Positions 7,893 through 29,907 of a stretch of DNA of 43,613 nt are shown in pieces. The first letter of the stretch is position 1. Each line of letters starts with the position of its first letter. Under the pieces are notes generated by a model. The model saw only the letters and a program-made list of their open reading frames with translations, ran no database searches and was not told where the DNA came from. Location: NCBI RefSeq assembly GCF_917627385.1, contig NZ_CAKJTL010000120.1:1-43613 (forward strand), written 5' to 3'. The position numbers were made by a program, and so were the translations under genes. Origin of the DNA: Protofrankia sp. CiT1 (GTDB lineage: Bacteria; Actinomycetota; Actinomycetes; Frankiales; Frankiaceae).

Positions 7893-7976
7893 GTCCGGGT
7901 GGCGGAATGGCAGACGCGCTAGCTTGAGGTGCTAGTGCCCTCTAAGGGCGTGGGGGTTCAAGTCCCCCCTCGGACA
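7893..7976 (+). tRNA. tRNA-Leu (anticodon GAG)
   Basis: The acceptor stem gtccggg (7893-7899) pairs with ctcggac (7969-7975, one G-T). The anticodon stem ctagc/gctag encloses the loop ttgaggt, giving anticodon GAG. A long variable arm (tgccctctaagggcg) marks a class II leucine tRNA. The T loop is ttcaagt with stems ggggg/ccccc. CCA is not encoded. The 3' end serves as the attachment site of the downstream element: the recombinase reading frame ends inside it on the opposite strand. Confidence 0.95.
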
Positions 7977-9615: not shown

Positions 9616-9617
9616 CG

Positions 9618-9791
9618 TCAGGCTACTTTCGTGTCAGCGTCGGGCGGCTTGTCGGTTGGCGCGTGTCGTGTTGTGCGGGCGGCTTCCATGTTGTGGAGCA
9701 GCCGTAGGAGTGCGGCGGCGAGGGTGGGTGTTATGGCCGGTGGCTGGTCGGGCAGGATCACCGTGATGGCGCGGCGCGTGTGGGGTGTCAT
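9618..9791 (-). CDS. 57-aa protein coupled to the recombinase
   Basis: ATG at 9791, stop TGA at 9618-9620, two bases before the recombinase ATG. The protein begins MTPHTRRAITVILPDQPP, continues with an Ala/Leu-rich helix (TLAAALLRLLHNMEAARTTR) and ends in a charged tail. The DUF2637 gene stops six bases upstream, so all three look like one transcript. It has no recognised domain. The position suggests a recombination accessory protein or a translational coupler for the integrase. The spacing on both sides is the main support. Confidence 0.6.
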   Translation of the reverse strand: MTPHTRRAITVILPDQPPAITPTLAAALLRLLHNMEAARTTRHAPTDKPPDADTKVA

Positions 9792-9797
9792 GGTCTT

Positions 9798-10709
9798 TCA
9801 CCGTTGACCATCGGGGTGATCGGTAGTCTTACGGTAGGTGGAGACGGTTTCTTGATCGAGGCCGGGCCTGCTGGATTCCGCAGCCTCGGCTGAGGTGACG
9901 TCGCCCGGGTTCCCGGCGCGTAGGGCCGCGAGCAGGAGCGTGGCCCGGTCGGTGGAGCAGCGGTGCCCGTGCTGGCGGACCCCGCGGGCGAGCGCCGCGC
10001 GTGTCAGTGGGCGGCGCTCGCGGGCCAGTTCCGCCGCCACCTCCCGTCCGACCGAAAGGAGATCGGCCGGCAAGCCGGTGGGCATCGAGCTGTCCTCGGT
10101 CAGGGGGCCTGGCCGGTCGGACCGGTCGGACCGGTCGTCGGTGGTCTCTGAGCGGGGGATGGTGCCTACCGGCGGTGCTGATGTCGGGCGGGTTGCCTTG
10201 AGACCGGCGACGAGACCGAACGCGACAACCGGCCATAGGGCCATTACCGGCACCCAGAAGCCGGGCGGGCCGGTCAGGGTGTGTGAGCCGGCAGCGGTGA
10301 GGTTCCCTGCGCCGGACATCGCGACGCCAGCAAGCAGTGTGGTCACCGGCCATCGGACCGGGGAGCCGGTGCGGTGGCGGTGGCGGATCTCGATGACCGA
10401 GGCGAGGGCCATCAGTTCGACGGACGCGGCGATCAGCCACGATGCCCAGTCGGGTTGTCCCGCCCAGCGGGCAACGTCGTGGATGTGTACGAACGCGACG
10501 AGGAACACCCCGGCGGCCATCACCACCGGCAGTGTGGCTCCGAGGACCGTCTCGGCGGAGACGCCGCGTCGGCGGCCAGCCGGATGTCGCCCGGCGGCCG
10601 TCGGTGGTCCGGCACGCGTTTCGTCGTGATCGGGTGATGCCGGGGTGGTCGCCGTGCGGATGTCCAGACCATCGGCGTGATCGGTGTGAGGAGACACAGG
10701 TGAGGTCAT
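9798..10709 (-). CDS. DUF2637 membrane protein
   Basis: The preferred start is the ATG at 10709 (MTSPVSPHTDHADG), giving 303 aa; the frame is open to 10976 but that part lies over the methyltransferase gene. Residues 60-180 contain four hydrophobic helices (TVLGATLPVVMAAGVFLVAF, SWLIAASVELMALASVIEI, TTLLAGVAMSGAGNLTAAG and VPVMALWPVVAFGLVAGL), the DUF2637 pattern common in actinomycete plasmids and integrative elements. The C-terminal 100 residues are soluble and include a small helical, possibly DNA-binding, part (ELARERRPLTRAALARGVRQ). It sits between the methyltransferase and the recombinase module. DUF2637 proteins are linked to intramycelial spread by position only; the function is not established. 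Confidence 0.8.
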   Translation of the reverse strand: MTSPVSPHTDHADGLDIRTATTPASPDHDETRAGPPTAAGRHPAGRRRGVSAETVLGATLPVVMAAGVFLVAFVHIHDVARWAGQPDWASWLIAASVELMALASVIEIRHRHRTGSPVRWPVTTLLAGVAMSGAGNLTAAGSHTLTGPPGFWVPVMALWPVVAFGLVAGLKATRPTSAPPVGTIPRSETTDDRSDRSDRPGPLTEDSSMPTGLPADLLSVGREVAAELARERRPLTRAALARGVRQHGHRCSTDRATLLLAALRAGNPGDVTSAEAAESSRPGLDQETVSTYRKTTDHPDGQR

Positions 10710-10732
10710 TGCCGGCTCTTTTCCGGTAAGAA

Positions 10733-11605
10733 TTATGCGGCGAGGTGTCGGGTCTGGGGTGCGGCGATGGCCGAGAGTGCCACGCTCGCGAGATCGGGTG
10801 GTATGGCGTTCCCGATCTGGGCGAGCTTGGATGACAGGGGACCCTGCCAGGGATAGTCCTCGGGGAAGGATTGAAGGGTGCCGAACTCGGCGACGGTGAG
10901 GTTTCCGGTGTCGCCTTTCCATCGGCCAGTCTTCTGAGCGTCCGCGATGGTGAGACGGGAGGAGGTGCCGCCCCATGCATTACCTCGAGTCGTCACTGTG
11001 AACGACGGCCGATCGACGAATCCGCGGCTGATTCCGTCGGCCATGGAGCGCCATGGCCGCACCCCGGGTTGGTCACGTGAGTATCGAGTCCGGTAGCGGC
11101 TGTGGGTAGCGGCGGGTGGGTGGACGGGATGGTTGCCGTGGACAGCGAGGAGGAACGCGCGGCGGCGGGTCTGCGGTACCCCGTATTCTTCGGCGGCCAG
11201 TATCCCTGTCCATGTCGTGTAGCCGGCACGGCGTAGCTCGAACGCGAATCCCTTCCAGATAGGTAACACGCCGGGAACTTCCTCGCAGGCGATCCATCTC
11301 GGCTGTATGCGGCGAGCGAACCGCATTGGCTGGTAGACGAGCTGCCCTCGGGGGTCGTCGATCCCGCCGCCTTTCCCCGCGGTACTGAACGGCTGGCAGG
11401 GCGGGGAAGCGATCAGCCCATCGACGCCGGCGTAATCATCCGGACGAACTCCGGCGACGTCGTCTTCGACCGTCACGAAGCCCGCGGCGCGGCGGGTTTC
11501 GCAGGTACGGGGGTCCCACTCGATACCGATTTCTTCGAGGCCGAGGCGGGAACAGGCCAGCGACCAGCCACCCGCGCCAGAGAACAGGTCAAGAACTGTC
11601 GACAT
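10733..11605 (-). CDS. DNA (cytosine-5) methyltransferase
   Basis: The start at ATG 11605 is supported by a strong aaggaga ribosome site eight bases upstream, giving 290 aa. Motif I is LDLFSGAGGWS. Motif IV is SPPCQPF, with the catalytic Cys. ACEEVPGVLPIW follows (motif VI has E-E-V where most have E-N-V), then QTRRRAFLLAV (motif VIII). FGTLQSFPEDYPW and IGNAIPP are motifs IX and X. The target-recognition region is short, which is usual in mobile-element enzymes. No cognate restriction nuclease is beside it, so it probably protects the element against host restriction or marks its own DNA during transfer. Confidence 0.93.
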   Translation of the reverse strand: MSTVLDLFSGAGGWSLACSRLGLEEIGIEWDPRTCETRRAAGFVTVEDDVAGVRPDDYAGVDGLIASPPCQPFSTAGKGGGIDDPRGQLVYQPMRFARRIQPRWIACEEVPGVLPIWKGFAFELRRAGYTTWTGILAAEEYGVPQTRRRAFLLAVHGNHPVHPPAATHSRYRTRYSRDQPGVRPWRSMADGISRGFVDRPSFTVTTRGNAWGGTSSRLTIADAQKTGRWKGDTGNLTVAEFGTLQSFPEDYPWQGPLSSKLAQIGNAIPPDLASVALSAIAAPQTRHLAA

Positions 11606-11984
11606 CTCGTTTTCTCCTTGCCGGTTTCTCACATCGGGACGCATAATTTCCAGGAGGACGAACAACAAAGCCCAGCTAAGGACCTCCATGCGGACGGCGG
11701 GAGCCGGGGATCGTGGGAGGTGAGGCGGATGTCTCCGGGTGTTGATTCCGTCGCGGCTGGCCCGTTGCAGGGCGTGGAGATGCTACGAAGAGTCACTGTC
11801 TGGGTGGTCTTCGCCGGGTCGCGCCGTGAGGGGCAGGACCCGGCGCACGGCGTGGTTTTCCGCCCCGTTCCGCTTCCCGCCGACGAGGTGCTTACGTGCT
11901 ACGCTGCAGCTCAGCGGCGGTGTTGGCCGCTAGCAGGGGTGCTTTACATAAGCACGAGCGCCGCTTCCGCAAGCACCGTCCCGG
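11606..11984. other. Gap between translocase and methyltransferase genes
   Basis: A gap of 379 bases. A hairpin (gtgctt-tacat-aagcac, 11939-11955) lies just after the translocase stop and may be a weak terminator. A rightward frame from ATG 11729 has a good ribosome site (gggaggtgagg) and runs 100 codons to 12031, crossing the translocase 3' end. Its composition is unlike a normal protein, so I do not call it a gene. Confidence 0.4.
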
Positions 11985-14285
11985 CTATGCCGGACGCCGT
12001 CCGCGGTCACGTTCTGCCACCGCGGCGGTGATCTGGGTGCGGTCGATGCCGCGCCGGTTGACGACCTTTCCCTCGATCCGACGGTTGATCTGTATCGTTT
12101 CGATTCCCAGCGGCTTGAGCGCGACCGCGAGCTGTTCGGCGTTCCACCCGTTGTAGACTTCCGGCCGCAGCGCTGCCAGCCGGGCTGTGATTGTCTCCGA
12201 CCAGACCTTTCCCTCGGGCATCGGGGTCACGGCAACGATGTCATCCAGTAGTGACACGGACGGCGTGATTTCCTTGTCTGTGTCTCCGGTGGCATAGCCG
12301 TCAAGGGTGCCGGCGGCGGTTCGGGCCGCGCGCGCACGGTCGGCGATGTGTTCGGCCGCGACGGCATCGACATAGGCGGTACGGACAATGACCGGGGTGT
12401 CGGTTGCGCCGACAAGGTAGCCGATGCCTTTGTCTGTCGGCCGCAGCGTTGTGGCGCGGACACCGTTCTTGTACATCGAGGTGCCCAGCACCATGTCATT
12501 TTCTGTCTGGCCCATCACACGCAGGCAGAATCGGATCGAGGCATTCGATGAGACACCCGTGGGCAACGACGCGGCATCCGGTCGCTGGGTGGCCAGCAGC
12601 AGGATGACACCGAGTGCGCGGCCGAGCTTGATGACATCGGTCGCCAGCTCTCCCGCCTCCTTGCCGAATGCCGCATGACTGAACAGGTTCTGACATTCAT
12701 CGATGATCGCTACCAGTGGGTGCAGACCCAAGGCGCGGTGGTTCGCAAGTTGCCGCGTTACTTTCCCGTCTGGGCAGAGGTCCTTGGGTAGGCTTTTCAG
12801 CGCGGCGGCTCGGCGAACGATCTCGGCACGCAGGTCCCGTAAGGTCACGAGTGCCGCCTCGATCGCCTGGTCGTCGATCCCGGATGTATACCGGTGCGCG
12901 ACCTTCCCTGCGGCGTCCAGGTCCGCCGTGCCTTTCAGATTGAACACCCACAGCTCACAGGTCGGGTCCAACGCGGCGGCGAGCATCAACACGCGGACCG
13001 CCGACGTCTTTCCCGCCCCGGGTAGCGAGCCGATCAGTATATTGTTTTCCGGTAGGAGAATCGTCACGGGTCGGCCGCGCGGGTCCGAGCCGAACGGCAC
13101 CGGGGCGAACACATCCACCGCGCCCCGGCGAGCCAGTGGCCATGCGGCCGCGGGAGCCCTCGCCATGTCCTGATCGCCCACCCACAACACGAGCCGCCCC
13201 GCGTGGGCGTCCTCGGCGGCTTCGGGCCATACGCAGCCCAGCGGACGACGCAGCCCGGACGCGAGCCGCTCCCGACGGTCCAGGATGTCGGAGACGGTGA
13301 CGCCGTACGGTAGGTCGACGTCAGCCCGCCAGCCGGGACCGTCGCGAGTGATCGGCGCCGGGAAACTGATCCCGCCACCCTCTCGACGCACCTTGTTGAT
13401 CTCGGCGATGCCGAGGGACTCGAGGGCGCGGGTCACGATGTCGGCGGTCAACCGGCCTACCCGGGTTGGCACGACCGCCGGGCTGACAAGCGGCCGGTCC
13501 GCTGGTGCCCCCATGATGCCCAGGACTCCCAGCGCACCGGCGACGCCGAGCAGGCGTCCCATGACAGGGGCAGCCGACCAGGCACCATCCAGCAGGAAGA
13601 CGGCGGGCAGCAGGAGGAGGAGCGTTCCGAGTAGGCGGCGTCGCACGCGGCTGTCGTGGATCTGGGACAGCCGCAGGTACAGCGCTCCGTCGGCTTGGAG
13701 GACCGCGGCAGCCCGTATCGGCCGCCCCTCGGAGTCACTCAGCCAGCCCACGCCGCGGGCCAGGATGCGGCCCAGGCCGCGGGGAGCGCGCCCAGCGAGC
13801 CGGCCCACGTACGCCGGTAGCCGCACCCCGTGGAACGCGACCGTGTGCGTGTAATGGCCGGTCAGCCAGAGCGCCGCCGCGTGAAACGTGGTCCAGGAAC
13901 GCGCCCACACGGGCAGAATCGGCCGCCGGCTTGCCGTGCGCGCGCGGTCGATGATCGGCGGCCGTGGCGGTTTCGGCGGGTCAACCGGCACCAGCCCGGT
14001 GCCGTCCGGCGGATGATGGCCGGGACCGAGTTGGTCGGGATCGAGTTGGTCGGGCGGGGCCGGCACCGTCGGGAGGTTCGACGCGGGGACTGCCGGGCTG
14101 CGGTCGGCTGGCAGGTAGCGGGAGATCTCCCTGCTGACTGCTCTCATGTCGGGCACCCATCCGCCAGGTACGGACGTCGGGCTGGACCGGTCGGGGGGCG
14201 GACCGACCGCTCCCGACGTCGGGCTGTGTGGTCCGTCCGGCGGGCCGGAAGCTTCGGGCTGTTGATGGGACGCGGGCTCGGTCAT
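11985..14285 (-). CDS. TraB/FtsK-type DNA translocase
   Basis: A 766-aa membrane ATPase of the FtsK/SpoIIIE fold. Residues 1-115 are Pro/Ser-rich and soluble. Two TM helices lie at about 218-262 (LLGTLLLLLPAVFLL and LLGVAGALGVLGIMG). The motor carries Walker A GSLPGAGKTS at about 419-428 and Walker B LVAIIDECQNLF about 100 residues later, then the LLATQRPDAASLPTGV and SNASIRFCLRV segments typical of FtsK motors. The C-terminus holds a small winged-helix-like part (WNAEQLAVALKPLGIETIQINRRIEGK..NRRGI), the position where TraB proteins bind their recognition repeats. In actinomycetes such a protein alone moves double-stranded DNA between hyphae. The start has a ggagaggaaat ribosome site. Confidence 0.92.
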   Translation of the reverse strand: MTEPASHQQPEASGPPDGPHSPTSGAVGPPPDRSSPTSVPGGWVPDMRAVSREISRYLPADRSPAVPASNLPTVPAPPDQLDPDQLGPGHHPPDGTGLVPVDPPKPPRPPIIDRARTASRRPILPVWARSWTTFHAAALWLTGHYTHTVAFHGVRLPAYVGRLAGRAPRGLGRILARGVGWLSDSEGRPIRAAAVLQADGALYLRLSQIHDSRVRRRLLGTLLLLLPAVFLLDGAWSAAPVMGRLLGVAGALGVLGIMGAPADRPLVSPAVVPTRVGRLTADIVTRALESLGIAEINKVRREGGGISFPAPITRDGPGWRADVDLPYGVTVSDILDRRERLASGLRRPLGCVWPEAAEDAHAGRLVLWVGDQDMARAPAAAWPLARRGAVDVFAPVPFGSDPRGRPVTILLPENNILIGSLPGAGKTSAVRVLMLAAALDPTCELWVFNLKGTADLDAAGKVAHRYTSGIDDQAIEAALVTLRDLRAEIVRRAAALKSLPKDLCPDGKVTRQLANHRALGLHPLVAIIDECQNLFSHAAFGKEAGELATDVIKLGRALGVILLLATQRPDAASLPTGVSSNASIRFCLRVMGQTENDMVLGTSMYKNGVRATTLRPTDKGIGYLVGATDTPVIVRTAYVDAVAAEHIADRARAARTAAGTLDGYATGDTDKEITPSVSLLDDIVAVTPMPEGKVWSETITARLAALRPEVYNGWNAEQLAVALKPLGIETIQINRRIEGKVVNRRGIDRTQITAAVAERDRGRRPA

Positions 14286-16692: not shown

Positions 16693-16700
16693 TCAAGATC

Positions 16701-16733
16701 GCGAGTGCCACCCCGCTACGGGGTGGCACTCGC
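16701..16733 (+). terminator. Strong intrinsic-type terminator hairpin
   Basis: gcgagtgccaccccg, loop cta, then its perfect reverse complement: a 15-bp stem with a 3-base loop, 9 bases after the stop of the 135-aa gene. Only a weak tccttcgtt follows, as is common in high-GC actinomycetes. It separates the transfer module from the STAND operon. Confidence 0.85.
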
Positions 16734-16877
16734 TCCTTCGTTGCCGATGCCCTTGTGAGCCGCCGGCATATGTCTTGCACTGACCCGGCTCGGAGTGACC
16801 GAGTTGTCCGTGTTCACATTCGTTGGGAAACCGATCCGTTATGATCCGCCTGTACCGGTGGGCGGGAGGTGACCAGC

Positions 16878-17666
16878 TTGGCGGGGCCGGAGACGGCGGC
16901 GCACTACGAGCGCCTTGCCGGCAGCTACGACCACAACTGGTCGCACAATGGAGCGTTCCTGGGCTGGATGGCCCACGCGATTGCCAGCTCGCTCGCTTTG
17001 AGCGCGGCTGACCGGATCGCCGATGTCGGCTGCGGGACAGGGCTGTTCACCCGCCGTATCCGTGACCTGGTCCGTCCCTCGTCACCCGTCTTGTGCGTCG
17101 ACCCCTCGGCCGCGATGCTCGCGCAGCTTCCCGCTGATCCCGGTTTACAGCCCCTGCGTGCCTCCGCCGAGGAACTGGCCCGCGGGCGGCCGGCATCGGC
17201 CGGACCGACCACTGCGCACGGAAGTCTCGACGCGATCATCGTCAAGGAAGCGATCCACCACGTGGCGGACGTCGACCGCCGATGGGTCATTGCCGGCCTC
17301 GCCGACCTACTCGGTGTCCGTGGCAGGCTGCTCGTCGTGATGCTGCCAACTCGGATCGAGTATCCGCTGTTCGACGCGGCGCTCGAGAGGTTCGAGTCCC
17401 TCCAGCCCGCCCCCGACGTCATCGCCGATCACATACGACGGGCGGGTCTGTCGGCCAGCGTCACCTACCACGACTTCCCGCTCGAGATTCCCAAGGGCCG
17501 CTATCTGGCGATGGTGCGAGACCGTTACATGTCCTTGCTTGCGACGTTCGATGACGTCGAGATCGAGGCCGGACTCGCCGAGATCGACCGCCGACATACC
17601 GAGAAGATACTGTCATTCCCGGACCGGTTCGCGTTCGTCCTCGGCGCACGGGAAGGTAACCGTTGA
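16878..17666 (+). CDS. Class I SAM-dependent methyltransferase
   Basis: 262 aa from TTG 16878, which has gggagg nine bases upstream; the GTG at 16869 would sit directly on that site. Motif I is IADVGCGTGLFTRRI. VLCVDPSAAMLAQL is the acidic loop after strand 2. DAIIVKEAIHHVADVDR is motif II/post-II. The N-terminus (AAHYERLAGSYDHNW) is typical of small-molecule methyltransferases of the UbiE/methyltransferase-11 type. Its stop overlaps the TTG start of the STAND gene (TTGA), so it is the first gene of that operon. Whether it modifies a metabolite, a nucleotide signal or a component of the system cannot be told. Confidence 0.85.
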   Translation: MAGPETAAHYERLAGSYDHNWSHNGAFLGWMAHAIASSLALSAADRIADVGCGTGLFTRRIRDLVRPSSPVLCVDPSAAMLAQLPADPGLQPLRASAEELARGRPASAGPTTAHGSLDAIIVKEAIHHVADVDRRWVIAGLADLLGVRGRLLVVMLPTRIEYPLFDAALERFESLQPAPDVIADHIRRAGLSASVTYHDFPLEIPKGRYLAMVRDRYMSLLATFDDVEIEAGLAEIDRRHTEKILSFPDRFAFVLGAREGNR

Positions 17667-20359
17667 CAGAAGCCATTGACGATCGGCTCCGCCGGTTGCA
17701 GAGCGAGCTGGAAAGTCACTCCAGGATCGCGCGGCATCTCGGCCTGGATTTCGATCGACCGGTCCGCTCCCTGGGCGACGGCTATCCCGAAAACACCATC
17801 GCACTGATCGGAAAGATTTCCGAGCGTCTGCTGAAGCAGGTATGGAGCCATTACGAGGTACCCGGCGACCCTTCCGGCAAGGCCCTGAACGATCTGATCA
17901 AAGGTTGTCGGCCGCATATTCGCAGCACCAACGTCATCAACGCTCTCACGGACATCCAGAGGCTCCGGAACAGGTCCACGCACGACGGCTACGACATTGC
18001 CGACGAAGACGGTCTTCTCGCGGTACGACGCCTGCTCGACGTCCTCGACTGGTTCACGAACACTGGACTTACCGCGGTCACCGGGGACTCGCCGCAGCTC
18101 AGCCCCCTCGTCGAGAAAAAGGCCGAGTTTCTCGCCGGCCTCTACGCAACGCTGGGCTTCCGTGCAGTCAAGCGCTTCGAGCTGTCCGAGAGCACGGTTT
18201 ACCAATTGTTCGGTCGGCAAGCCGGGCTGCGAGTCGAGTACGTCGAGATCATGCTCAGTCGGAGTCTGGATGAGCTGAGCCAGCTCTTGAGCGCCACGAG
18301 TGGCGATCTTCTCCAGACGCAGCTTCCCAAGCGGACACGGTTCCTACTGGTTGAGGATGAGCCCTCCACGGGGGTAACGCCGTTTGCCGACGGCGAGATC
18401 CGCATCATCGCCTACGAGCGATTCGTAGAGACAATAGTCGACGTACCCGGCCATCTGGCGGCCCTGCAGCGCGTGTACCCGCCGGTTGTTCCAAGTGCCG
18501 AAGTCGCCGAGCCGATGACGATCACAGCCGAACTCATGGAAGCCGACCAGCACACCGGTGAGTTGGATATCAGCGAAACCAGCGATGCCGCGGAGATGCT
18601 GCGGAGCCTCGCCAGCACGTCGGCGAACATCCTCGTCATCGGCGGGCCAGGCAGTGGAAAGACGACTCTGCTCAAGCGCCTTGTTGTGGCCCCGGAGGGT
18701 TCCCCGACCCATCGCTATCGTTTCTACCTCGATATGAGCCTTAAGCAGCCCGACGAGGAGTTCGGCGATTTCGTAACCCGCATCCTCGCACCATACATGC
18801 CGATCTCCCGCCAGCGGGTATTCGACGTGTTCCTTTACCTGATACGCGCAGGATCTGTGCTCTGTGTGCTTGACGCCATCGACGAGGCGGTCCAGAGCAC
18901 CAGCCTCACAGCGTTCCTTTCCCTGTTTGCGGACGTCGCGCAGGCCCTCTCCGCCGAGTCGACGGTAGTCATGTCGTCCCGATATTCGTTCCTCGCTGAC
19001 TCTCCGCAGGTCCGGCGGCTGTTGAATAATTCGTCCCTTATCTCGGAGCAGCTCGTACAGCAGCTTCACGCGAACGGCGTCGACCCGCTCGAGCTGCCGC
19101 GGTTCGCCGTAGTACATCTGCACGATCTACAGTTGCAGCGGCATCAGCAGACGCTCACCGTCTCGCCTCTCGAGGTGCGACTCGCAGACCAGACCGGGCG
19201 CGGCGACACGGTCCTCACCGCTGACTCGGCGGGGCGCCTCGCCGATCTCGTCGCCGCCCGCGTCGGGCAGATCCTCACGTCGAGGAACCTCTCGCATCTT
19301 CAGTGGGGCCTCGAACGACTGCTCGGACTCGGTTTCCTGGCAGACAAGACCATCTTCTCGCTGGCCGAAGTCTGCACGGAACTCGGCATCGAGTGCTTCG
19401 CCGTCGGGCGGGTGAGCCAGGAGACCTTCCTCCTCGCCCCATTGTTCCGGCCGGCGGGAGCTGACGCCGTGACCCCCGTCCACTCCGTGTTCCAGGAGTA
19501 CTTCGCTGCCCGACTTCTGCGGACCGCCGAGGGGCGGGCGGCCGCCGCGGCCGCCGGCACGGAACCTTTGCTGACGGAGCAGGTCCGAAGGTTTCTCCAC
19601 TACCTCGGAACCGAGACACCCCCGGCCGCACCGCTCGTCGTCCCGGCCGGCTTTTACGTGCTCGGCCCCAGTCACCGACTACTTCTCCGCGAGGTGGAGA
19701 AGCCGGTGGCCTTCGACGAGTTCCCGGTGACTGTCGGGCGGTACAAGGGATTCCTTGGCGCAGTCGAACGCCAGGGCAGCGGAGCGTGGGACCACCCCGA
19801 GACGCCAGTAGGGCACAGCCATGAGCCGTGGTGGGAACGTCTGCGCGCTGCCGACTACTTCACCGACCCTCAGTTCGACGAGTATCCGGCTATCTGCATT
19901 AGCTGGTGGAGCGCCTACGCGTTCGCCCGTTTCGAGGGCAAGCGGCTTCCGACCTCCCTCGAGTGGGAAGCCGCAGCCCGGGGAGCCGACGGCCGTCTGT
20001 TCCCGTGGGGCGATATGCTCGACCTCGACGCGGTAAACTGCGCCGACGCATGGAGCGGTCGCCCACTGGTGACCTACGAAGTGTGGAAGCAGGAGATCGA
20101 CGACGGCCGACTCAAGGAGTGCGCGCCGACCAAAGTCACCGACCATCCTCGTAATCAGTCCCCCTGCGACGTCAAGGGGATGTCCGGGAACGTCTGGGAG
20201 TGGACCGAGACTGTGTTCGACAACCTCAACTCGGCCGTGATATGCGGCGGCTCGTACGACAATCCGTACCGTGCCGTCCAGGTATCCTCGAAGGCACTCT
20301 ACGTCCGCCGCGGATGCAGCAACGCCGTCGGATTTCGCTGCGTGCGGGAGGCAGAATGA
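17663..20359 (+). CDS. STAND NTPase: HEPN-like + NACHT + FGE/SUMF1-fold protein
   Basis: 898 aa. Residues 40-135 look like a DUF4145/HEPN domain with an R-N-x3-H motif (Arg102, Asn103, His107), the signature of many HEPN ribonucleases. Residues 145-260 form an alpha/beta region I cannot name. The NACHT ATPase has Walker A GGPGSGKTT (327-335) and Walker B VLDAIDE (Asp404-Glu408). A helical or winged tail follows to about 655. Residues 660-898 are a formylglycine-generating-enzyme/C-type-lectin-like fold (FDEFPVTVGRY, ISWWSAYAFARFEGKRLPTSLEWEAAARG, MSGNVWEWT, GFRCV) without the C-x4-C catalytic pair, so it is probably a binding module. The layout resembles bacterial immune STANDs: effector, switch, sensor. 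Start TTG and end ATGA both overlap neighbours. Confidence 0.88.
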   Translation: MTEAIDDRLRRLQSELESHSRIARHLGLDFDRPVRSLGDGYPENTIALIGKISERLLKQVWSHYEVPGDPSGKALNDLIKGCRPHIRSTNVINALTDIQRLRNRSTHDGYDIADEDGLLAVRRLLDVLDWFTNTGLTAVTGDSPQLSPLVEKKAEFLAGLYATLGFRAVKRFELSESTVYQLFGRQAGLRVEYVEIMLSRSLDELSQLLSATSGDLLQTQLPKRTRFLLVEDEPSTGVTPFADGEIRIIAYERFVETIVDVPGHLAALQRVYPPVVPSAEVAEPMTITAELMEADQHTGELDISETSDAAEMLRSLASTSANILVIGGPGSGKTTLLKRLVVAPEGSPTHRYRFYLDMSLKQPDEEFGDFVTRILAPYMPISRQRVFDVFLYLIRAGSVLCVLDAIDEAVQSTSLTAFLSLFADVAQALSAESTVVMSSRYSFLADSPQVRRLLNNSSLISEQLVQQLHANGVDPLELPRFAVVHLHDLQLQRHQQTLTVSPLEVRLADQTGRGDTVLTADSAGRLADLVAARVGQILTSRNLSHLQWGLERLLGLGFLADKTIFSLAEVCTELGIECFAVGRVSQETFLLAPLFRPAGADAVTPVHSVFQEYFAARLLRTAEGRAAAAAAGTEPLLTEQVRRFLHYLGTETPPAAPLVVPAGFYVLGPSHRLLLREVEKPVAFDEFPVTVGRYKGFLGAVERQGSGAWDHPETPVGHSHEPWWERLRAADYFTDPQFDEYPAICISWWSAYAFARFEGKRLPTSLEWEAAARGADGRLFPWGDMLDLDAVNCADAWSGRPLVTYEVWKQEIDDGRLKECAPTKVTDHPRNQSPCDVKGMSGNVWEWTETVFDNLNSAVICGGSYDNPYRAVQVSSKALYVRRGCSNAVGFRCVREAE

Positions 20360-20637
20360 CCGCGCCCACTCGCCGTCCCGAGGCTGCCCAGCGATTCGGC
20401 CGTATCGTCGACCGGCAGCCGCTGGGCGGCGGTCCCCACCGTGTCACAGCGACCTACTTCGTTCGCGACGACGAAGACGGTGAGACATACGGTTTCGACT
20501 ACAGCGACATCGTCACGGAAGGCTTTCGGACGACCGTCGTCGGTGAGCGGGTTCGCTTCGAGATAGACCCCGCCACCCGACGTGCCTGTTTCGTGATCAG
20601 GCTGGATCTGCCGGAGGTCGACGAATTCTATCGGTAA
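20356..20637 (+). CDS. Cold-shock-like OB-fold small protein
   Basis: 93 aa, ATG overlapping the STAND stop (ATGA). RFGRIVD...YGFDYSDIVTEGFRTTVVGERVRFEID...ACFVIRL follows the cold-shock domain order: GxV strand, YGF with SDI after it, VGERVRFE and a last strand. The aromatic RNP1 surface is partly changed (YGFDYS), so nucleic-acid binding is plausible but not certain. Because it is translated in step with a protein carrying a HEPN-like domain, it may present or protect RNA for that system. The fold assignment is by pattern only. Confidence 0.65.
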   Translation: MTAPTRRPEAAQRFGRIVDRQPLGGGPHRVTATYFVRDDEDGETYGFDYSDIVTEGFRTTVVGERVRFEIDPATRRACFVIRLDLPEVDEFYR

Positions 20638-20681
20638 GCGCTGACGGACGACACTCCGTCGTCGCCGTCTGCCTGGCACGC

Positions 20682-21848
20682 GTGACAAAGGCCCCGGATT
20701 GGGCAGAAGGCCCGGTGCCGCTTGGGCACCGTGACATTGAGGCGACGGACGCCGCCCGGCGCACTTACTTCAGCCCACCTTGCACTCGTGTCCTCTACGG
20801 TGACGGGACACGGCCCAGCCGCTGGCATCGCCTTGCGTCCGTTCAAATCGCCGGCGGCGAAATTTTCGCTGTTGAACTTGTCATCCCCGATCTCGCCGGG
20901 CGGTCCGATACAGCATTTGCGATCTTCCATATCAACAGCCACCAAGGCCAGCTACGAGATCTTCTACGAAGTCTCGCCGGACGACGCGGCACCAGCTCGC
21001 TCGTGCCCGACCTTGAGGCGGCGCTCCAGCCGTGGGCACTCCTGTTCGCTGGCCGTCCCTACACCGTCGCGTTCCTCAGCTCGACGGAGCGGCAGCTACC
21101 GCGACCGCTGGGTGCCAGGCATGTGCGGTCCTGGTCCCGGGCCGAGCAGTGGCTGTGGCTGCTCGCGTCTCGCACGTCTCCCGATGACTACCCGCCTGAC
21201 CCCGACCGTGCTGACCAATTGCTCGGTGGGACCGTGGTCCTGTCGGGTGACTGGCGCGGCCTGGTCACCAGGGACGGCGCCGCCTTCGTCGGCCTACGTC
21301 GCGACCGCGGCGACCGTGATCCCTTCCTGGGCTACGCACAACTCTATGCACATACCACCTACCTCGACGCCATTCTCCTCGGCATGATCCAGCGTTCGCA
21401 TATCGAGGCGATGGTCGACGAGGCAGCGCGGGCGTTTGACGCGGACGACATGCCCCGCCATCTGCCAAAGCTGGAAGAGCAGGCGGCACGGTTTCGCAGT
21501 ATCTATTGGCTGCGCGACGCCAGCGCTCACGGATCGGCTAATGATATTCTCACTGCCTATCAATCGCAACACCGGCTACCGGAGCGGTTCGACGCGGTAC
21601 TAGCCGAGATTGCCGACCTCAACAGGATTGTTCAAACGCAGGAAGGGCAGCGGGTAGCTGCGGCCCTCGGTCTACTCACCGTGGTCGGCCTACCGTTCGG
21701 AACGGCTTTCGGCGTTCTGCAGATCATCGGAACGAACTCATTATTCTATCTTATGATGGGCCTACTCGCCGCGAGCGTGACAACTGTGCTGCTTCTCCTC
21801 ACCCGCCTCGGCAGGCTCCTTATTCGAGAGCTGCGGCGATTGGAATAG
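20682..21848 (+). CDS. CorA-like two-TM membrane protein
   Basis: 388 aa starting at GTG 20682, 44 bases after the cold-shock-like gene. A soluble alpha/beta part (1-200) is followed by a long helical region (FDADDMPRHLPKLEEQAARFRSIYWL; FDAVLAEIADLNRIVQTQEGQRVAAAL). Two C-terminal TM helices end the protein (LLTVVGLPFGTAFGVLQIIG and LFYLMMGLLAASVTTVLLLLTRLG). This long-helix plus two-TM end resembles CorA-type channels, but the GMN selectivity loop is absent (GTN at the loop). Last gene of the operon. A membrane-perturbing effector or a scaffold is a reasonable reading; neither is shown. Confidence 0.7.
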   Translation: MTKAPDWAEGPVPLGHRDIEATDAARRTYFSPPCTRVLYGDGTRPSRWHRLASVQIAGGEIFAVELVIPDLAGRSDTAFAIFHINSHQGQLRDLLRSLAGRRGTSSLVPDLEAALQPWALLFAGRPYTVAFLSSTERQLPRPLGARHVRSWSRAEQWLWLLASRTSPDDYPPDPDRADQLLGGTVVLSGDWRGLVTRDGAAFVGLRRDRGDRDPFLGYAQLYAHTTYLDAILLGMIQRSHIEAMVDEAARAFDADDMPRHLPKLEEQAARFRSIYWLRDASAHGSANDILTAYQSQHRLPERFDAVLAEIADLNRIVQTQEGQRVAAALGLLTVVGLPFGTAFGVLQIIGTNSLFYLMMGLLAASVTTVLLLLTRLGRLLIRELRRLE

Positions 21849-22278: not shown

Positions 22279-22723
22279 GGCGCGCTGGCGGGACGTAGGC
22301 GAAGCGAATCGGCACGATCGCCGAGTCCGCGATTCCGGACTCTTCGGCAAAATGGTCTGCGGCGTTCGGTGTCGGAAAGGGCATCGTCACCTCTAACGGC
22401 CGATCTGTAGCCCCGTCCAGGCACACGAGAGCCCACAATGTCGCGTGTCGCTTCAACGCGGCATCTTCCGTCTGCGGCGCCACGGGCGGGCTCGGCGGGG
22501 GCACAGCAAGCTGCGGCATCTGCCGCAGCAACTCCCGCCCAACCTCACGCCTCGGTACTCCTCCGGACTGCTCGCCCACCACATCCTCTCCGCAACCGCC
22601 GGTCCTGATCCTGCTCGACGCGCTATCGTCCCGATACGCACGTGATTCCAATGTCTCCTCGCCTTTCTTTCGCTTCGGACAGTGCCCTTGCATGAATGGG
22701 GGTGCAAGAGCATCGCTGGTCAT
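22265..22723 (-). CDS. Small hypothetical protein (paralogue A)
   Basis: 152 aa from ATG 22723, which overlaps the TPR-protein stop (ATGA); other starts are possible because residues 15-90 are low-complexity and polar. The C-terminal 60 residues (LWALVCLDGATDRPLEVTMPFPTPNAADHFAEE, then IVPIRFAYVPP) form the conserved part shared with the next gene. No family recognised. The coupling suggests it works with the TPR protein. Confidence 0.55.
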   Translation of the reverse strand: MTSDALAPPFMQGHCPKRKKGEETLESRAYRDDSASSRIRTGGCGEDVVGEQSGGVPRREVGRELLRQMPQLAVPPPSPPVAPQTEDAALKRHATLWALVCLDGATDRPLEVTMPFPTPNAADHFAEESGIADSAIVPIRFAYVPPARRAGP

Positions 22724-23781
22724 ACCTGTGTGAGTCGCGTCGCGCGCCAAAGGCGCACGTGTTCCTTCAGATTCTCGATGAGTGGGCCGGGAGCGCGGTT
22801 GCGGGCGCTCACGACGAAGGCGCAGGCGCGGCGCTCAATGTCGGCGAGTTTGCGGGCGCTGGAGACCTCGAGCGCCTCGTTCATGTAGTCGACCGCCGAT
22901 TCGATCTCGTCGCGGGCTAGCATCGCCCTCGCCGCATTGGTCCGAACGTAGGCTCGATGGCTGACGGCCGGTGCACGGTCGAGGGCGGCAATTCCGCGCT
23001 CGGTGTGCAAGAGCGCGGCATGCGGGTTTCCGGCGTCGATGTAGGCCGCCGCCGTGATGGAGTCGAGTTCGGCTGGGTGCAGGCGGTTGGGGTGCCACCC
23101 GGGATGCCCCCGCTGTTCGGGCGCGAAGTCACCGACAATCGTCCAGGCATCGTCCAAAGCCTGAGACGTGCCACGCTGGTCGCCGAGCTTCGCCAACGAG
23201 GCGGCGATGCATTCGGCCGCGAGTCGGGCGGCGACGGGAGAGCCGGGCGGGGCGACGGCCCATCCGTCCCGCGCGTACACCAGCGCCTGCCGGGGCTGAT
23301 CCTCGGCAAGTTCAACCGACGACTGCAGGAGCCGGCACCACGCCTGACCAGTCGCGTCCTTGCCGAGCACCGCGTGGTCGTAGGCGGCGATGAGCGTACG
23401 TGATGCCTGCCCCGTCCAGCCTGTGTCGAGCTGGGCATTCCCGAGCATCGCGGCGAGGCGACCGGCCGCGGCGTGCATCCGGCGCAGCCCTTCCTCGTCG
23501 AGACCGCCTTCGGCAAGGATCGCGTGCGCAATCGGCAAGTCCCGGCGGACGGCCTGTGCAGTGGCCGGCACCGGCGCGTAAGGATACGAGTCGGTGAGCT
23601 TCGTAGCGATCTTTTCGAAGTGCTCGAGAACCTCAGGCGGGGCCTTCACACGACCGCCACCAACGAGCAACAGACCCGGAAGAACGAAGCCGCCGAGCAC
23701 GGCGCGACGTCTCGTGATCTGGGCGCCTGCGGCGCCTGTCTGGGCTCGTCGTTGACAGAGATCGACACACACAAGGGGCAA
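22720..23781 (-). CDS. TPR-type protein lacking its usual HTH head
   Basis: 353 aa from TTG 23781 (a ggaggt lies two bases upstream; GTG 23772 is an alternative). The N-terminus has TRRRAVLGGFVLPGLLLVGG, then helical repeats to the end (AMLGNAQLDTGWTGQASR, AYDHAVLGKDATGQAWCRLLQSSV, AYIDAGNPHAALLHTERGIAAL, MLARDEIESAVDYMNEALEV). This is the C-terminal half of the common actinomycete XRE-TPR regulators, including the RRR..L.GG linker, but here without the DNA-binding head. A matching head lies divergently at 24096 fused to something else. It could act as a signal-sensing partner or be the product of a gene rearrangement. Confidence 0.7.
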   Translation of the reverse strand: MPLVCVDLCQRRAQTGAAGAQITRRRAVLGGFVLPGLLLVGGGRVKAPPEVLEHFEKIATKLTDSYPYAPVPATAQAVRRDLPIAHAILAEGGLDEEGLRRMHAAAGRLAAMLGNAQLDTGWTGQASRTLIAAYDHAVLGKDATGQAWCRLLQSSVELAEDQPRQALVYARDGWAVAPPGSPVAARLAAECIAASLAKLGDQRGTSQALDDAWTIVGDFAPEQRGHPGWHPNRLHPAELDSITAAAYIDAGNPHAALLHTERGIAALDRAPAVSHRAYVRTNAARAMLARDEIESAVDYMNEALEVSSARKLADIERRACAFVVSARNRAPGPLIENLKEHVRLWRATRLTQV

Positions 23782-24095
23782 CTACCTCCAATCGAGAAGT
23801 CATGCCGTATAGATGGGCGAGCGATCAGCGAGTCCTCGCCAGCGCATCCCCGATCCGTTAAGCCCTCGTCCGTGTTCGGACATACGGGTGAGGGGTGCGA
23901 CCTTGCCGACGGCGAGGCGTATCAGCCCGTCGACCGCCTGCGAGCACAGCGTCCTACCTGCGTGACGAGTCCGCCAAATCGTTCGAGTACTGATCTTTAT
24001 GTCAAAAACGAGTACCGGTCGCGTCGCAGGGTCCGCTGCGGGCGGCTATATCGTTAACTCATGCGCGTCGGAGCTGAATGATCGGAGTTGCCCCA
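23782..24095. promoter_or_regulatory. Divergent intergenic region
   Basis: About 315 bases between the leftward TPR operon and the rightward XRE-FGE gene; both promoters must lie here. No gene seen. The last 100 bases are less GC-rich (gatctttatgtcaaaaacg, then tatatcgttaactcatg), the best place for the rightward promoter. No clear operator palindrome was found. Confidence 0.45.
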
Positions 24096-25679
24096 ATGGC
24101 CGTGCCCATGCGCCGCTGCTGCGGCGGTTGCGGGAACCATCTTGCACCCAACAGCTACGATGGGCTTTGTGCGCTTTGCCAACGACGCCAGGCTAGCTTT
24201 GCCGCATTGACCGAGCCGCCCGAGCTGCCTCTTGAGTTCTGGACGGCCGATCCGATGTTCGAGGCGCTCGCCACACGACACATGGGAAAAGTCATTCGTA
24301 CCTACCGTAGTTGTCTCGGGGGCGGCACGAGTGGATCGGGCGCTATTGCGCAGGAGACGGTAGCGCACTGGCTGGGGGTGACTCAGGCCCTTCTTAGTCG
24401 AGCTGAAAACGGCGACGCACCAACGGATCTACGAAAGCTTGCCGAGTGGGCGCAAACCCTAAAGATCCCCGACTTTCTGTTGTGGTTCAAACTGCCGGGA
24501 AGACACCTCCTACCGGGCACGTGGCCGAACGATGGCGATGTCGCACCGCGAGAACGAGGTTGGGGGCCCGCTGCGAGCGGCCAGGACGAGATGCCGCACC
24601 GACAGTTTGAAGGACTGGCGCCGCGTCTCGAGACGTTGCTTGGCCTCGGCTTCATCGCCGATCAGACGGTCTTCTCGCTCTCCGAGGTCTGGACCCAGCT
24701 CGGGATTGACACCCTCATCGGCCGACAGGTCGAGCCGGAGGGATTTCTTTTGGCACCGTTCTTGCGACGCAGTGGAAACGGCACGGTAACGGCGACGCAC
24801 CCGGCATTTCAGGAGTATTTTGCGTCCCGGCTCCTGCGGACTGCTCATGGCCGTGCAGCCGCGTTTGATGTCCACGAAAGCGAGCCCGTCCTGACAGAAC
24901 AGATCCGGCGACTTCTACAGTACTTCGGTGCCCAGACGCCGGCAGCGCCGCCGCTTGTCCTTCCCGCCGGGATCTATGTCGTCGGCCCGAGTCATCGGCT
25001 GCTGCTACGGAAGGTCGAAAACTCGGTCATTTTCGACGAGTTTCCCGTGACGGTCAGCCGGTACAGGCGCTTCCTTGCCGCGGTCGAGCGGCGGGGCTGC
25101 GCCGCGTGGGATCACCCGGACACGCCTGCCGGCCACAGCCATGAGCCGTGGCACGAGCGGCTACGGAACCGGGAGTACTTCACCGACCCGCAGTACGATG
25201 ATCATCCCGTCACGTGCATCAGCTGGTGGAGCGCCTACGCCTTCGCCTGGTTCGAGGGCAAGCGGCTCCCGACGTCGCTCGAGTGGGAGGCTGCCGCTCG
25301 GGGCGCCGACGGCCGGCTCTTCCCCTGGGGTGACACGCTCGATCTCACTGCCGTGAACTGCGCCGACGCGTGGAGCTCCCGGCCGCTGGTCACCTACCGA
25401 GCCTGGAAAGAGGAGATCGACGGCGGCGGACTGCGCGACAGCGGTCCGACGGCGGTCACGGACCATCCGGCAAACGTCTCGCCGTTCGGCGTGCGCGAGA
25501 TGTCCGGCAACGTGTGGGAGTGGACAGGCAGCGTGTTCGACGCTGTCAACTCCGCGGTCGTTTGCGGTGGCTCCTACGACAGCCCGTACCGTGCCGTCCA
25601 GACCTCCTCGAAGGCGCTCTACGTGCGCCGAGGCTGTAGCAACGCCGTTGGCTTCCGGTGCGTTCGGGATGCTGCGTGA
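24096..25679 (+). CDS. XRE-type regulator fused to STAND-tail and FGE/SUMF1 fold
   Basis: 527 aa from ATG 24096 (cggag eight bases upstream; ATG 24078 is an alternative). Numbering from 24078, residues 14-34 hold a zinc ribbon (C-C-G-G-C...C-A-L-C) and 65-140 an XRE helix-turn-helix ending EWAQTLKIPDFLLWFKLPG, exactly like actinomycete XRE-TPR heads. From about residue 180 (LETLLGLGFIADQTVFS) to the end it is instead a paralogue of the STAND protein's last 350 residues: the post-NACHT tail and the FGE fold. The FGE parts are roughly three-quarters identical by eye, and the last 40 residues nearly so. The NTPase is absent, as are FGE catalytic cysteines. It looks like a DNA-binding protein that shares the STAND sensor, probably a regulator or decoy. 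Confidence 0.88.
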   Translation: MAVPMRRCCGGCGNHLAPNSYDGLCALCQRRQASFAALTEPPELPLEFWTADPMFEALATRHMGKVIRTYRSCLGGGTSGSGAIAQETVAHWLGVTQALLSRAENGDAPTDLRKLAEWAQTLKIPDFLLWFKLPGRHLLPGTWPNDGDVAPRERGWGPAASGQDEMPHRQFEGLAPRLETLLGLGFIADQTVFSLSEVWTQLGIDTLIGRQVEPEGFLLAPFLRRSGNGTVTATHPAFQEYFASRLLRTAHGRAAAFDVHESEPVLTEQIRRLLQYFGAQTPAAPPLVLPAGIYVVGPSHRLLLRKVENSVIFDEFPVTVSRYRRFLAAVERRGCAAWDHPDTPAGHSHEPWHERLRNREYFTDPQYDDHPVTCISWWSAYAFAWFEGKRLPTSLEWEAAARGADGRLFPWGDTLDLTAVNCADAWSSRPLVTYRAWKEEIDGGGLRDSGPTAVTDHPANVSPFGVREMSGNVWEWTGSVFDAVNSAVVCGGSYDSPYRAVQTSSKALYVRRGCSNAVGFRCVRDAA

Positions 25680-28269: not shown

Positions 28270-29907
28270 GGCTCTTACAAGATTTTCGTAGCGGGTGGTC
28301 GCGCTGGTCCGTTGAGCAGGATGCGCTGGCGGAGCAGGGCGAAGCCGGCGCGGCCGTAGGTCTGGCGCTTCAGAAGCTTGATCTTGTTGTTGACGCCTTC
28401 GGTGGCGCCGTTACTGTAGGGCAGGTGCAGGCTGGCTGCGACCGCTTGGCGGTCCTTGTTCAGGCCGTGGATGAAGGAGTGCAGGGCGGGCAGGTCGTCG
28501 GCCTGGACCGCATCGTTCCAGCTCTGCAGGTCACCGCCGGGTTCGGTGATCAGGCGGGCGAAGGCGGCGACGTGCCCAGCCAGGGCGGTCATCTCGGGGC
28601 AGACGGCGGTGAGCTTGTCGCGCAGGGCGCGGTGCTCGTCGCTCAGACGGCCGGACTCGGTCATGATCCAGTAGGTGAGGCGGCGCACCGAGGGGTCCGC
28701 CAGCGGCTGCTCGGCGCGGCCCTGGTTCAGGTAGCGGACCAGCAGGTTCGCACTGCCGGTGTAGCCCATCGCGCGGATCTCGGCGAGCAGGGTGGTGGTG
28801 GCCACCGGCCCGGCCGCCCTGCGCTGGCGGAGGTGGTCGCGGAATGGGTCCACCAGGCAGCGCCGGTACTGGGGTGGGCGGATCAGCTGGTCCGGGTCGG
28901 CGACGCGGGCGTAGCGCGTGACGGTGTTCAGCCCGAGGCCGAGACGTCGGGCGGTCTCACACAGCCCCACGCCGCCGTCCAGCAGTTCGTGGACCGCGGC
29001 ATGCCGCGCCAGGGTGCGCTCGTTGCGGGAGCCCACCGCGGTCTCCATCGCAGCTGTGCGCCAGCACCTGGCGTGCGCGGCCACCGTCTTCTCCGCTGCG
29101 GTGCCCAATCCCCGCCACAGGTGCCAACGATCAGTAACCTGCACCGCGCCCGGCAGGGCGTCGGTGACCGCCTGGGCGTAGGAGGCCGATCCATCCCGGC
29201 AGACGATCTCGACCCCGGGATGGGCCCGCAGCCACGCGGCCAGCGTTGCGGCGGTGCGGTCCGGCAACACGTCCACCCGGGCGTGGCTGACCGCGTCGAT
29301 CAGGATCGTGGCGTAGCGGTACCCGCGCCGCAGCGCGAAGTCATCCACACCGAGCACCTTGGGCACCGGCGGCCGCGGCCGGGGCACGGCCATCAGGCCG
29401 TGCAGCAGCGTGGCCCAACTGACCACCTGGTGCAGCGCGAGCAACAGCCGAGCCCCCGCCTTGCCCGCCAGCGCCACCGCCACCGCGTTCACCACCCGCT
29501 GCAGAGCCGGGGTCCGGCGCTGGTAGCGCACCGTGAGCCCGGCTACCTGCTCAGCGAAGGTGCTCTTCGAACAGGCCGGGTTCTGGCAGTACAGGCGCCG
29601 CACCGACAGGTCGATCACCACCGGCCGGCCACCGACCGCCTCATCGGCGACGTGCCGCACATACCGACTGTGCTCCCAGCCAGAAATCCGACCGCGGCCT
29701 GGGCAGGCGACCGCGAGACCCTCGCGGGTCCGCGCCGTGATCCGGATCAGCTCTCCGCCGGCCTCTACTCCCTGGACCTGCACCGCGGCCAGCTGCGGCA
29801 GCAGGACCTCCAACTCGATGTCACACAGCACCAGCCTGACCCCACGCCGACGACTCGTCATCTCGTCGGGGCACTCGATCACCAGCTACGAAAATCTTGT
29901 AAGAGCC
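28270..29907. mobile_element. Intact ISL3-family insertion sequence (1638 bp)
   Basis: Perfect 23-bp terminal inverted repeats: ggctcttacaagattttcg plus tagc at the left (28270-28292) and its exact complement at the right (29885-29907). The 8-bp duplication gttatttc flanks both sides. One intact transposase gene fills it on the minus strand. Intact ends, duplication and gene indicate a recent insertion. It splits the gene at 28161. Confidence 0.95.
28275..29882 (-). CDS. ISL3-family transposase
   Basis: 535 aa. The N-terminal zinc-finger region (a degenerate C-P-G-R at the usual CPxC site, then YCQNPACSKSTFAEQ) precedes a helix-turn-helix (LGLGLNTVTRYARV, in the middle) and the DDE catalytic domain: LGVDDFALRRGYRYATIL (first Asp), VCRDGSASYAQAV (second Asp), DRWHLWRGL, and IHGLNKDRQAV...SNGATEGVNNKIKLLKRQTYGRAGFALLRQRIL with the final Glu in ATEGVN. 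Length and order are those of full ISL3 transposases. The last codons run into the inverted repeat. Confidence 0.95.
   Translation of the reverse strand: MIECPDEMTSRRRGVRLVLCDIELEVLLPQLAAVQVQGVEAGGELIRITARTREGLAVACPGRGRISGWEHSRYVRHVADEAVGGRPVVIDLSVRRLYCQNPACSKSTFAEQVAGLTVRYQRRTPALQRVVNAVAVALAGKAGARLLLALHQVVSWATLLHGLMAVPRPRPPVPKVLGVDDFALRRGYRYATILIDAVSHARVDVLPDRTAATLAAWLRAHPGVEIVCRDGSASYAQAVTDALPGAVQVTDRWHLWRGLGTAAEKTVAAHARCWRTAAMETAVGSRNERTLARHAAVHELLDGGVGLCETARRLGLGLNTVTRYARVADPDQLIRPPQYRRCLVDPFRDHLRQRRAAGPVATTTLLAEIRAMGYTGSANLLVRYLNQGRAEQPLADPSVRRLTYWIMTESGRLSDEHRALRDKLTAVCPEMTALAGHVAAFARLITEPGGDLQSWNDAVQADDLPALHSFIHGLNKDRQAVAASLHLPYSNGATEGVNNKIKLLKRQTYGRAGFALLRQRILLNGPARPPATKIL

What the first reader, a model, noticed from the sequence alone, without database searches (positions are those of the whole stretch)
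24096..25679. NTPase-less XRE protein that shares the STAND protein's sensor module
The XRE head has lost its normal TPR part and instead carries the post-NACHT tail and FGE fold of the neighbouring STAND protein. The two FGE folds are roughly three-quarters identical by eye and almost identical at the end, so the duplication is fairly recent or kept similar by selection. Two proteins with the same ligand module but different heads (death effector against DNA binder) suggest a circuit in which one signal both triggers the effector and changes expression, or a decoy that sets the threshold.
Basis: partly seen in the sequence, partly recalled or inferred. Interest (0 to 1): 0.88.

Follow-up and report, generated by a model that had tools for sequence, protein, structure and literature searches.

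The report
DNA-binding twin of an immune sensor
Beside a bacterial immune-type gene (predicted HEPN toxin, NTPase switch and lectin-like sensor) lies a second gene that carries the same sensor joined to a DNA-binding head instead of the toxin and switch; selection has held the sensor tightly, so the cell may read one signal both as a weapon trigger and as a gene switch, although the fusion is so far known from one genome only.

Summary
The fusion is real. ORF 24078-25679 (533 aa) has an XRE/Zn-ribbon head of the actinomycete XRE-TPR type and a tail 72% identical (aa and nt) to the tail of the STAND protein at 17663-20359. That protein is HEPN-NACHT-FGE (HEPN predicted) and belongs to a conserved four-gene operon (methyltransferase, STAND, CSD-like, CorA-like) found sporadically in Frankiaceae, Streptomyces and a third family. 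The duplication is not recent: synonymous sites are saturated, and the near-identical C-terminus is shared by all orthologues. The two tails are sisters (support 99/96; AU p=0.004 against the alternative). The fusion is not decaying: omega is 0.074 in the tail and 0.084 in the head, neutrality rejected. Constraint is uneven: the FGE fold evolves as slowly as in the STAND copy (66 of 67 invariant sites kept; the one change, N502S, sits where true FGEs have a copper cysteine), while the post-NACHT module evolves about five times faster. This fits a protein that kept the sensor, lost the NTPase partner and kept a DNA-binding head: most likely a transcription regulator reading the same signal. No other XRE-FGE was found in the sampled collections. 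DNA binding, ligand and targets are untested; a shared operator was not significant.

The parts
24078..25679 (+). XRE-FGE fusion gene, 533 aa (alternative start 24096)
24078..24530 (+). XRE head: CxxC...CxxC ribbon-like N-terminus and HTH, residues 1-~151
   Evidence: 40-50% identical to heads of XRE-TPR regulators; omega 0.084, omega=1 rejected 2dlnL 10.9
24606..24962 (+). post-NACHT module, residues 177-295, evolving about 5 times faster than in the STAND copy
24963..25676 (+). FGE (FGS, C-type lectin-like) fold, residues 296-533, without the FGE copper cysteines; S502 replaces an otherwise invariant Asn
   Evidence: PF03781 E 1.8e-33
17663..20359 (+). STAND protein, 898 aa: HEPN (predicted)-NACHT-post-NACHT-FGE; source or sister of the shared tail
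17663..18088 (+). predicted HEPN domain of the STAND protein, residues 1-142, RN-x3-H at R102-H107
   Evidence: pLDDT 70-90; HEPN toxins are the best fold matches; motif in the nine orthologues checked
19292..20356 (+). STAND tail homologous to the fusion tail (post-NACHT and FGE)
16869..17666 (+). class I SAM methyltransferase, first gene of the conserved operon
   Evidence: Methyltransf_12 E 5e-11; conserved order
20356..20637 (+). small CSD-like protein, third gene of the operon
   Evidence: weak CSD match E 0.002; conserved order
20682..21848 (+). CorA-like protein with hydrophobic C-terminal segments, fourth gene of the operon
   Evidence: PADLOC CorA E 1e-8, residues 202-379; conserved order
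22720..23781 (-). NsdA-family TPR-like regulator without an HTH head, divergent from XRE-FGE; an independent gene, not the amputated half of the fusion
   Evidence: NF053720 profile 107-400 of 432; TPR-only relatives elsewhere
23782..24077 (.). divergent intergenic region TPR / XRE-FGE, candidate operator region (not shown)

Best explanation
XRE-FGE is a sensor-sharing transcription regulator. After an old duplication of the STAND tail, the copy was joined to the DNA-binding head of an XRE-TPR-type regulator. The FGE fold, which lacks the FGE copper site, acts as a binding module for the same or a closely related signal as the HEPN-NACHT-FGE protein. In the STAND protein, binding is expected to release the NACHT switch and its HEPN RNase; in XRE-FGE it would change DNA binding, most likely lifting repression at the immune operon and/or at the divergent promoter 23782-24077. 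Shown: the fusion, the relatedness of the tails, purifying selection, its unevenness, and absence of the FGE Cys pair. Inferred: shared ligand, DNA binding, targets and sign of regulation, HEPN RNase activity.
For: Tail under purifying selection equal to background: omega 0.074 against 0.071, omega=1 rejected, 2dlnL 26.6. Head constrained too: omega 0.084, omega=1 rejected, 2dlnL 10.9, which a mere ligand sink would not need. FGE evolves no faster than in the STAND copy (13 against 15 lineage-specific changes) whereas the post-NACHT module, whose expected partner NACHT is missing, is accelerated (17 against 3; heterogeneity p 0.008; branch 0.74 against 0.14). 66 of 67 sites invariant in 40 STAND tails are kept in FGE. 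Gene sits 2.2 kb downstream of the immune operon. FGS folds are proposed invader sensors in STAND systems (PMC8195603). Precedent for an XRE-family repressor of a toxic NLR-like operon: CdxB and lypABC (PMC13236601).
Against: Found in one genome only. No significant shared operator. No experimental evidence of DNA binding. N502S lies at the place of the former copper cysteine, so the ligand may differ. A constrained HTH could serve dimerisation or autoregulation of a decoy. The head's omega covers pre-fusion time as well.
Confidence: 0.45

Rival explanations
1. Decoy or threshold setter: XRE-FGE binds the same ligand, or pairs with the STAND protein through its tail, and so buffers or inhibits activation; the XRE head matters mainly for dimerisation or autoregulation.
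For: FGE surface kept almost unchanged; lacks both the toxin and the NTPase; lies beside the STAND operon.
Against: Head under purifying selection with intact CxxC pairs and HTH. If pairing with the STAND protein ran through the post-NACHT module, that module should not be the accelerated part.
Confidence: 0.25
2. A regulator that now senses a different ligand and controls other genes (for example the divergent TPR gene or mobile-element functions), with no functional tie to the STAND protein.
For: Old duplication (synonymous saturation); N502S at the former active-site position; divergent TPR gene next door; mobile-element-like neighbourhood.
Against: Close linkage to the STAND operon and FGE constraint equal to that of the STAND copy, with no excess of changes at invariant sites.
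Confidence: 0.2
3. One-off accident: a truncated STAND remnant that happened to fuse in frame to an XRE head and has no function.
For: Truncated copies of the operon that keep only the 3' part exist (L038, L153, L290). No other XRE-FGE found.
Against: Open over 533 codons at saturated synonymous divergence; omega 0.074, neutrality rejected with 2dlnL 26.6; FGE not accelerated.
Confidence: 0.07

Closest known systems
STAND NTPase-FGS conflict systems (Burroughs/Aravind, PMC8195603; Kaur et al., PMC7159879)
   Same: The neighbour has the NACHT plus C-terminal FGE/FGS combination described there as an invader-sensing architecture; N-terminal parts vary between systems.
   Different: The passages read list EADs, TIR, caspase, trypsin, kinase and others fused to STAND-FGS, not an XRE-FGS protein sharing the sensor of an adjacent STAND protein; the fusion has no NTPase. 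Other HTHs are noted as effectors in related systems.
Actinomycete XRE-TPR regulators (NsdA-like)
   Same: Same ribbon plus HTH head, 40-50% identical.
   Different: TPR half replaced by post-NACHT plus FGE.
Formylglycine-generating enzyme / SUMF1 / EgtB-type FGE-fold enzymes
   Same: Same fold (PF03781; Foldseek to 6muj, 2q17; profile match to CalU17 and SUMF1).
   Different: Both copper-site cysteines are absent from the fusion and from the STAND copy.
CdxB-lypABC (Caulobacter, PMC13236601)
   Same: XRE-family repressor of a toxic NLR-like operon.
   Different: CdxB is a 132-aa HTH protein; as described there it has no sensor in common with the NLR-like protein.
HEPN-STAND proteins (Anantharaman et al., PMC3710099)
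   Same: N-terminal HEPN with a STAND NTPase, sometimes with cold-shock-like domains; here a CSD-like protein is a separate gene.
   Different: The FGE tail, the methyltransferase and the CorA-like gene are not mentioned in the passages read.

Membership tests
XRE-TPR (NsdA-like) regulator | XRE-type HTH head with CxxC ribbon | tested here: met
   40-50% identity, E to 1e-30, intact CxxC pairs; Pfam HTH_3 itself only 17.2 bits, below its cut-off
XRE-TPR (NsdA-like) regulator | C-terminal TPR half | tested here: not met
   residues 177-533 are post-NACHT plus FGE
STAND NTPase | P-loop NTPase (NACHT) domain | tested here: not met
   XRE-FGE has none; the neighbour has one, NACHT E 2e-7
Copper-dependent formylglycine-generating enzyme | FGE fold | tested here: met
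   PF03781 E 1.8e-33; Foldseek E 5e-5 on a low-confidence model
Copper-dependent formylglycine-generating enzyme | active-site cysteine pair | tested here: not met
   GGSYDSPYRAV (fusion) and GGSYDNPYRAV (STAND) against GGSYLCHASYC of a Streptomyces FGE in L177
HEPN domain (STAND N-terminus) | HEPN fold | tested here: inconclusive
   top Foldseek hits are HEPN toxins, prob 0.94-1.00, but E 0.05-0.2; no Pfam match
HEPN domain (STAND N-terminus) | Rx4-6H motif | tested here: met
   R102-x4-H107 (RNRSTH), present in the nine orthologues checked
DGR-diversified FGE protein | variable repeat, template repeat and reverse transcriptase | not tested
   the conserved C-terminus across 40 tails argues against diversification; no RT search was run
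Sequence-specific DNA-binding regulator | binds an operator | not testable with these tools
   a motif shared by the two promoters was not significant

The most novel reading that the evidence does not exclude
A bacterial NLR-like immune locus with its own transcription factor built from the immune receptor's sensor: one ligand-recognition fold, duplicated and kept under equal constraint, feeds both a toxin switch and a gene switch.
Probability: 0.35. Interest if true: 0.75.

Novelty: new variant of a known kind. Interest (0 to 1): 0.55.

Why it matters
What FGE/FGS folds sense in bacterial STAND proteins is open (PMC10907252, says that such domains associated with STAND proteins have not been characterised experimentally). 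A natural protein that carries the same sensor without NTPase and toxin is a ready handle for ligand capture, and its DNA-binding head offers a reporter readout. If the two share a ligand, it would show that bacteria can wire an immune receptor's sensor into transcription.

Tried and rejected
Recent duplication or gene conversion: rejected, fourfold sites are saturated overall and no window is close to identity; ancient conversion is not excluded. Split gene (the TPR neighbour as the amputated half of the XRE protein): rejected, the nearest TPR relatives include TPR-only proteins of about 340 aa in other Frankiaceae, with no XRE head in the loci inspected. Decaying remnant: disfavoured. Shared operator between 16693-16868 and 23782-24077: GTCCGTGTTC(GG)ACATWCG found, p about 0.07, inconclusive. 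AlphaFold of XRE-FGE: mean pLDDT 44.9 with 11 sequences, used only for fold matching. The first alignment for it put the XRE heads in the wrong place and was discarded. The genome-contig scan with the tail alignment fell on generic FGE motifs and gave one close locus, Pseudofrankia BMG5.36. Short Streptomyces FGE proteins looked like possible XRE-FGE but have other heads (HEAT-like or kinase). Second copy in G872 with a 586-aa frame: a truncated operon, not a fusion.

Full report
OBSERVATION. The ORF at 24078-25679 (+) encodes 533 aa. Residues ~8-150 match XRE regulators of the same bacterial family (40-50% identity, E to 1e-30), the intact ones of which continue into a TPR-like half. Residues 184-532 match STAND residues 550-897 at 72% identity, and the DNA is 748/1038 identical. 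The tail comprises a post-NACHT module and an FGE fold (PF03781, E 1.8e-33). Nothing of HEPN or NACHT is left. The longest exact DNA matches seen in that alignment are only about 20 bases, so a misassembly joining two genes is unlikely (inference).

THE NEIGHBOUR. The STAND protein has a NACHT domain (E 2e-7) and an N-terminal domain predicted mostly at pLDDT 70-90 whose best fold matches are HEPN toxins (7bxo, 2hsb, 7ae8; prob 0.94-1.00 but weak E-values). An RN-x3-H motif at R102-H107 is present in the nine orthologues checked and fits the HEPN Rx4-6H motif (PMC3710099, which also notes bacterial HEPN-STAND proteins, some with cold-shock-like domains). The gene is second in a tightly packed, partly overlapping four-gene operon: methyltransferase, STAND, 93-aa CSD-like protein, 388-aa CorA-like protein with hydrophobic C-terminal segments. 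The same four genes in the same order are found beside the STAND gene in other Frankiaceae, on a Streptomyces mirabilis plasmid, in another Streptomyces and in a third family (f90); some further copies are truncated. By tail match the STAND gene or a remnant occurs in 8 of 35 Frankiales, 21 of 393 Streptomyces and 12 of 299 f90 genomes.

AGE AND ORIGIN. In trees of 12 and of 41 tails, XRE-FGE and the window STAND are sisters (99/98 and 99/96), and holding the window STAND together with the other Frankiaceae STANDs without XRE-FGE is rejected (p-AU 0.004). Fourfold-degenerate identity of the two is 0.35 against 0.36 expected at saturation. The duplication is therefore old, and the near-identical C-terminus reflects constraint seen in every orthologue. 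Whether it happened in this genus or came in from an unsampled relative cannot be told: the four other sampled genomes of the genus have neither gene.

SELECTION. A branch-specific codon model (own implementation, F3x4, fixed topology) gives omega 0.074 on the XRE-FGE tail branch against 0.071 background; omega=1 costs 13.3 log units (2dlnL 26.6). By region, omega=1 is rejected for FGE (2dlnL 16) and, weakly, for post-NACHT (2dlnL 6). Some branch lengths run to their bounds because of saturation, so the values are rough. The head gives omega 0.084, omega=1 rejected (2dlnL 10.9); its branch includes time before the fusion.

UNEVEN CONSTRAINT. Amino-acid branch lengths on a fixed tree: FGE 0.14 (XRE) against 0.205 (STAND); post-NACHT 0.74 against 0.142. 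Relative-rate counts against a Frankiaceae consensus: FGE 13 against 15 (p 0.85), post-NACHT 17 against 3 (p 0.003), heterogeneity p 0.008. Of sites invariant in 40 STAND tails, XRE-FGE keeps 66 of 67 in FGE and 8 of 11 in post-NACHT. These tests are related to one another and the counts are small. The one FGE departure, N502S, aligns with the first cysteine of the FGE copper site; the cysteine pair is absent from both proteins, so the fold is best read as a binding module (inference, in line with PMC8195603).

SEARCH FOR OTHER XRE-FGE. None in 35 Frankiales (all candidates scored), 396 Actinomycetota, 394 Actinomycetes, 393 Streptomyces or 299 f90 genomes; the draws overlap, and in the wide ones only the best few candidates per genome were scored. 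No plasmid record covers 80% of the protein, phage records hold two distant FGE matches, and viral contigs gave distant FGE matches only. Every other close tail lies on a frame of about 880 aa or more, or on a truncated remnant.

MECHANISM. A kept sensor, a lost switch, a drifting switch-coupling module and a constrained DNA-binding head point to a regulator that reads the STAND ligand (0.45). A decoy (0.25) and a regulator for a changed ligand (0.2) remain. Precedent for XRE control of an NLR-like toxic operon: CdxB and lypABC (PMC13236601). No operator could be shown.

VERDICT. Real, constrained, and a new domain architecture built from known parts, so far in one genome. New variant of a known kind.

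Noticed in passing
window 16869-21848: Four-gene operon methyltransferase / HEPN(predicted)-NACHT-FGE / CSD-like / CorA-like protein, conserved in order and sporadic in Frankiaceae, Streptomyces and a third family; PADLOC has no system model for it, only CorA hits to the last gene. A candidate defence operon, and a SAM-methyltransferase next to a CorA-like protein recalls SAM-AMP/CorA signalling in type III CRISPR (speculation; PMC10600005 seen).
   Followed up: partly
window 7942-14285: Large serine recombinase (7942-9615, -) and FtsK/SpoIIIE-like translocase (11985-14285, -), as in actinomycete integrative conjugative elements; the operon may be cargo of such an element.
   Followed up: no
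window 22720-23781: NsdA-family TPR-like protein without HTH, divergent from XRE-FGE; TPR-only relatives of about 340 aa occur in other Frankiaceae.
   Followed up: partly
L038, L153, L290: Decayed copies of the operon that have lost the 5' part (G003, G561, second copy of G872) but keep the tail, CSD-like and CorA-like genes in whole or in part.
   Followed up: partly
L175, L176, L178: Streptomyces FGE proteins with other heads: neighbouring pairs with HEAT-like N-termini (L175, L176) and a kinase-FGE (L178).
   Followed up: no
window 16701-16733: Perfect 14-bp-arm hairpin GCGAGTGCCACCCC-GCTAC-GGGGTGGCACTCGC upstream of the methyltransferase, probably the terminator of the preceding unit.
   Followed up: no
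window 28275-29882: ISL3-type transposase gene (-) 2.6 kb downstream of XRE-FGE.
   Followed up: no
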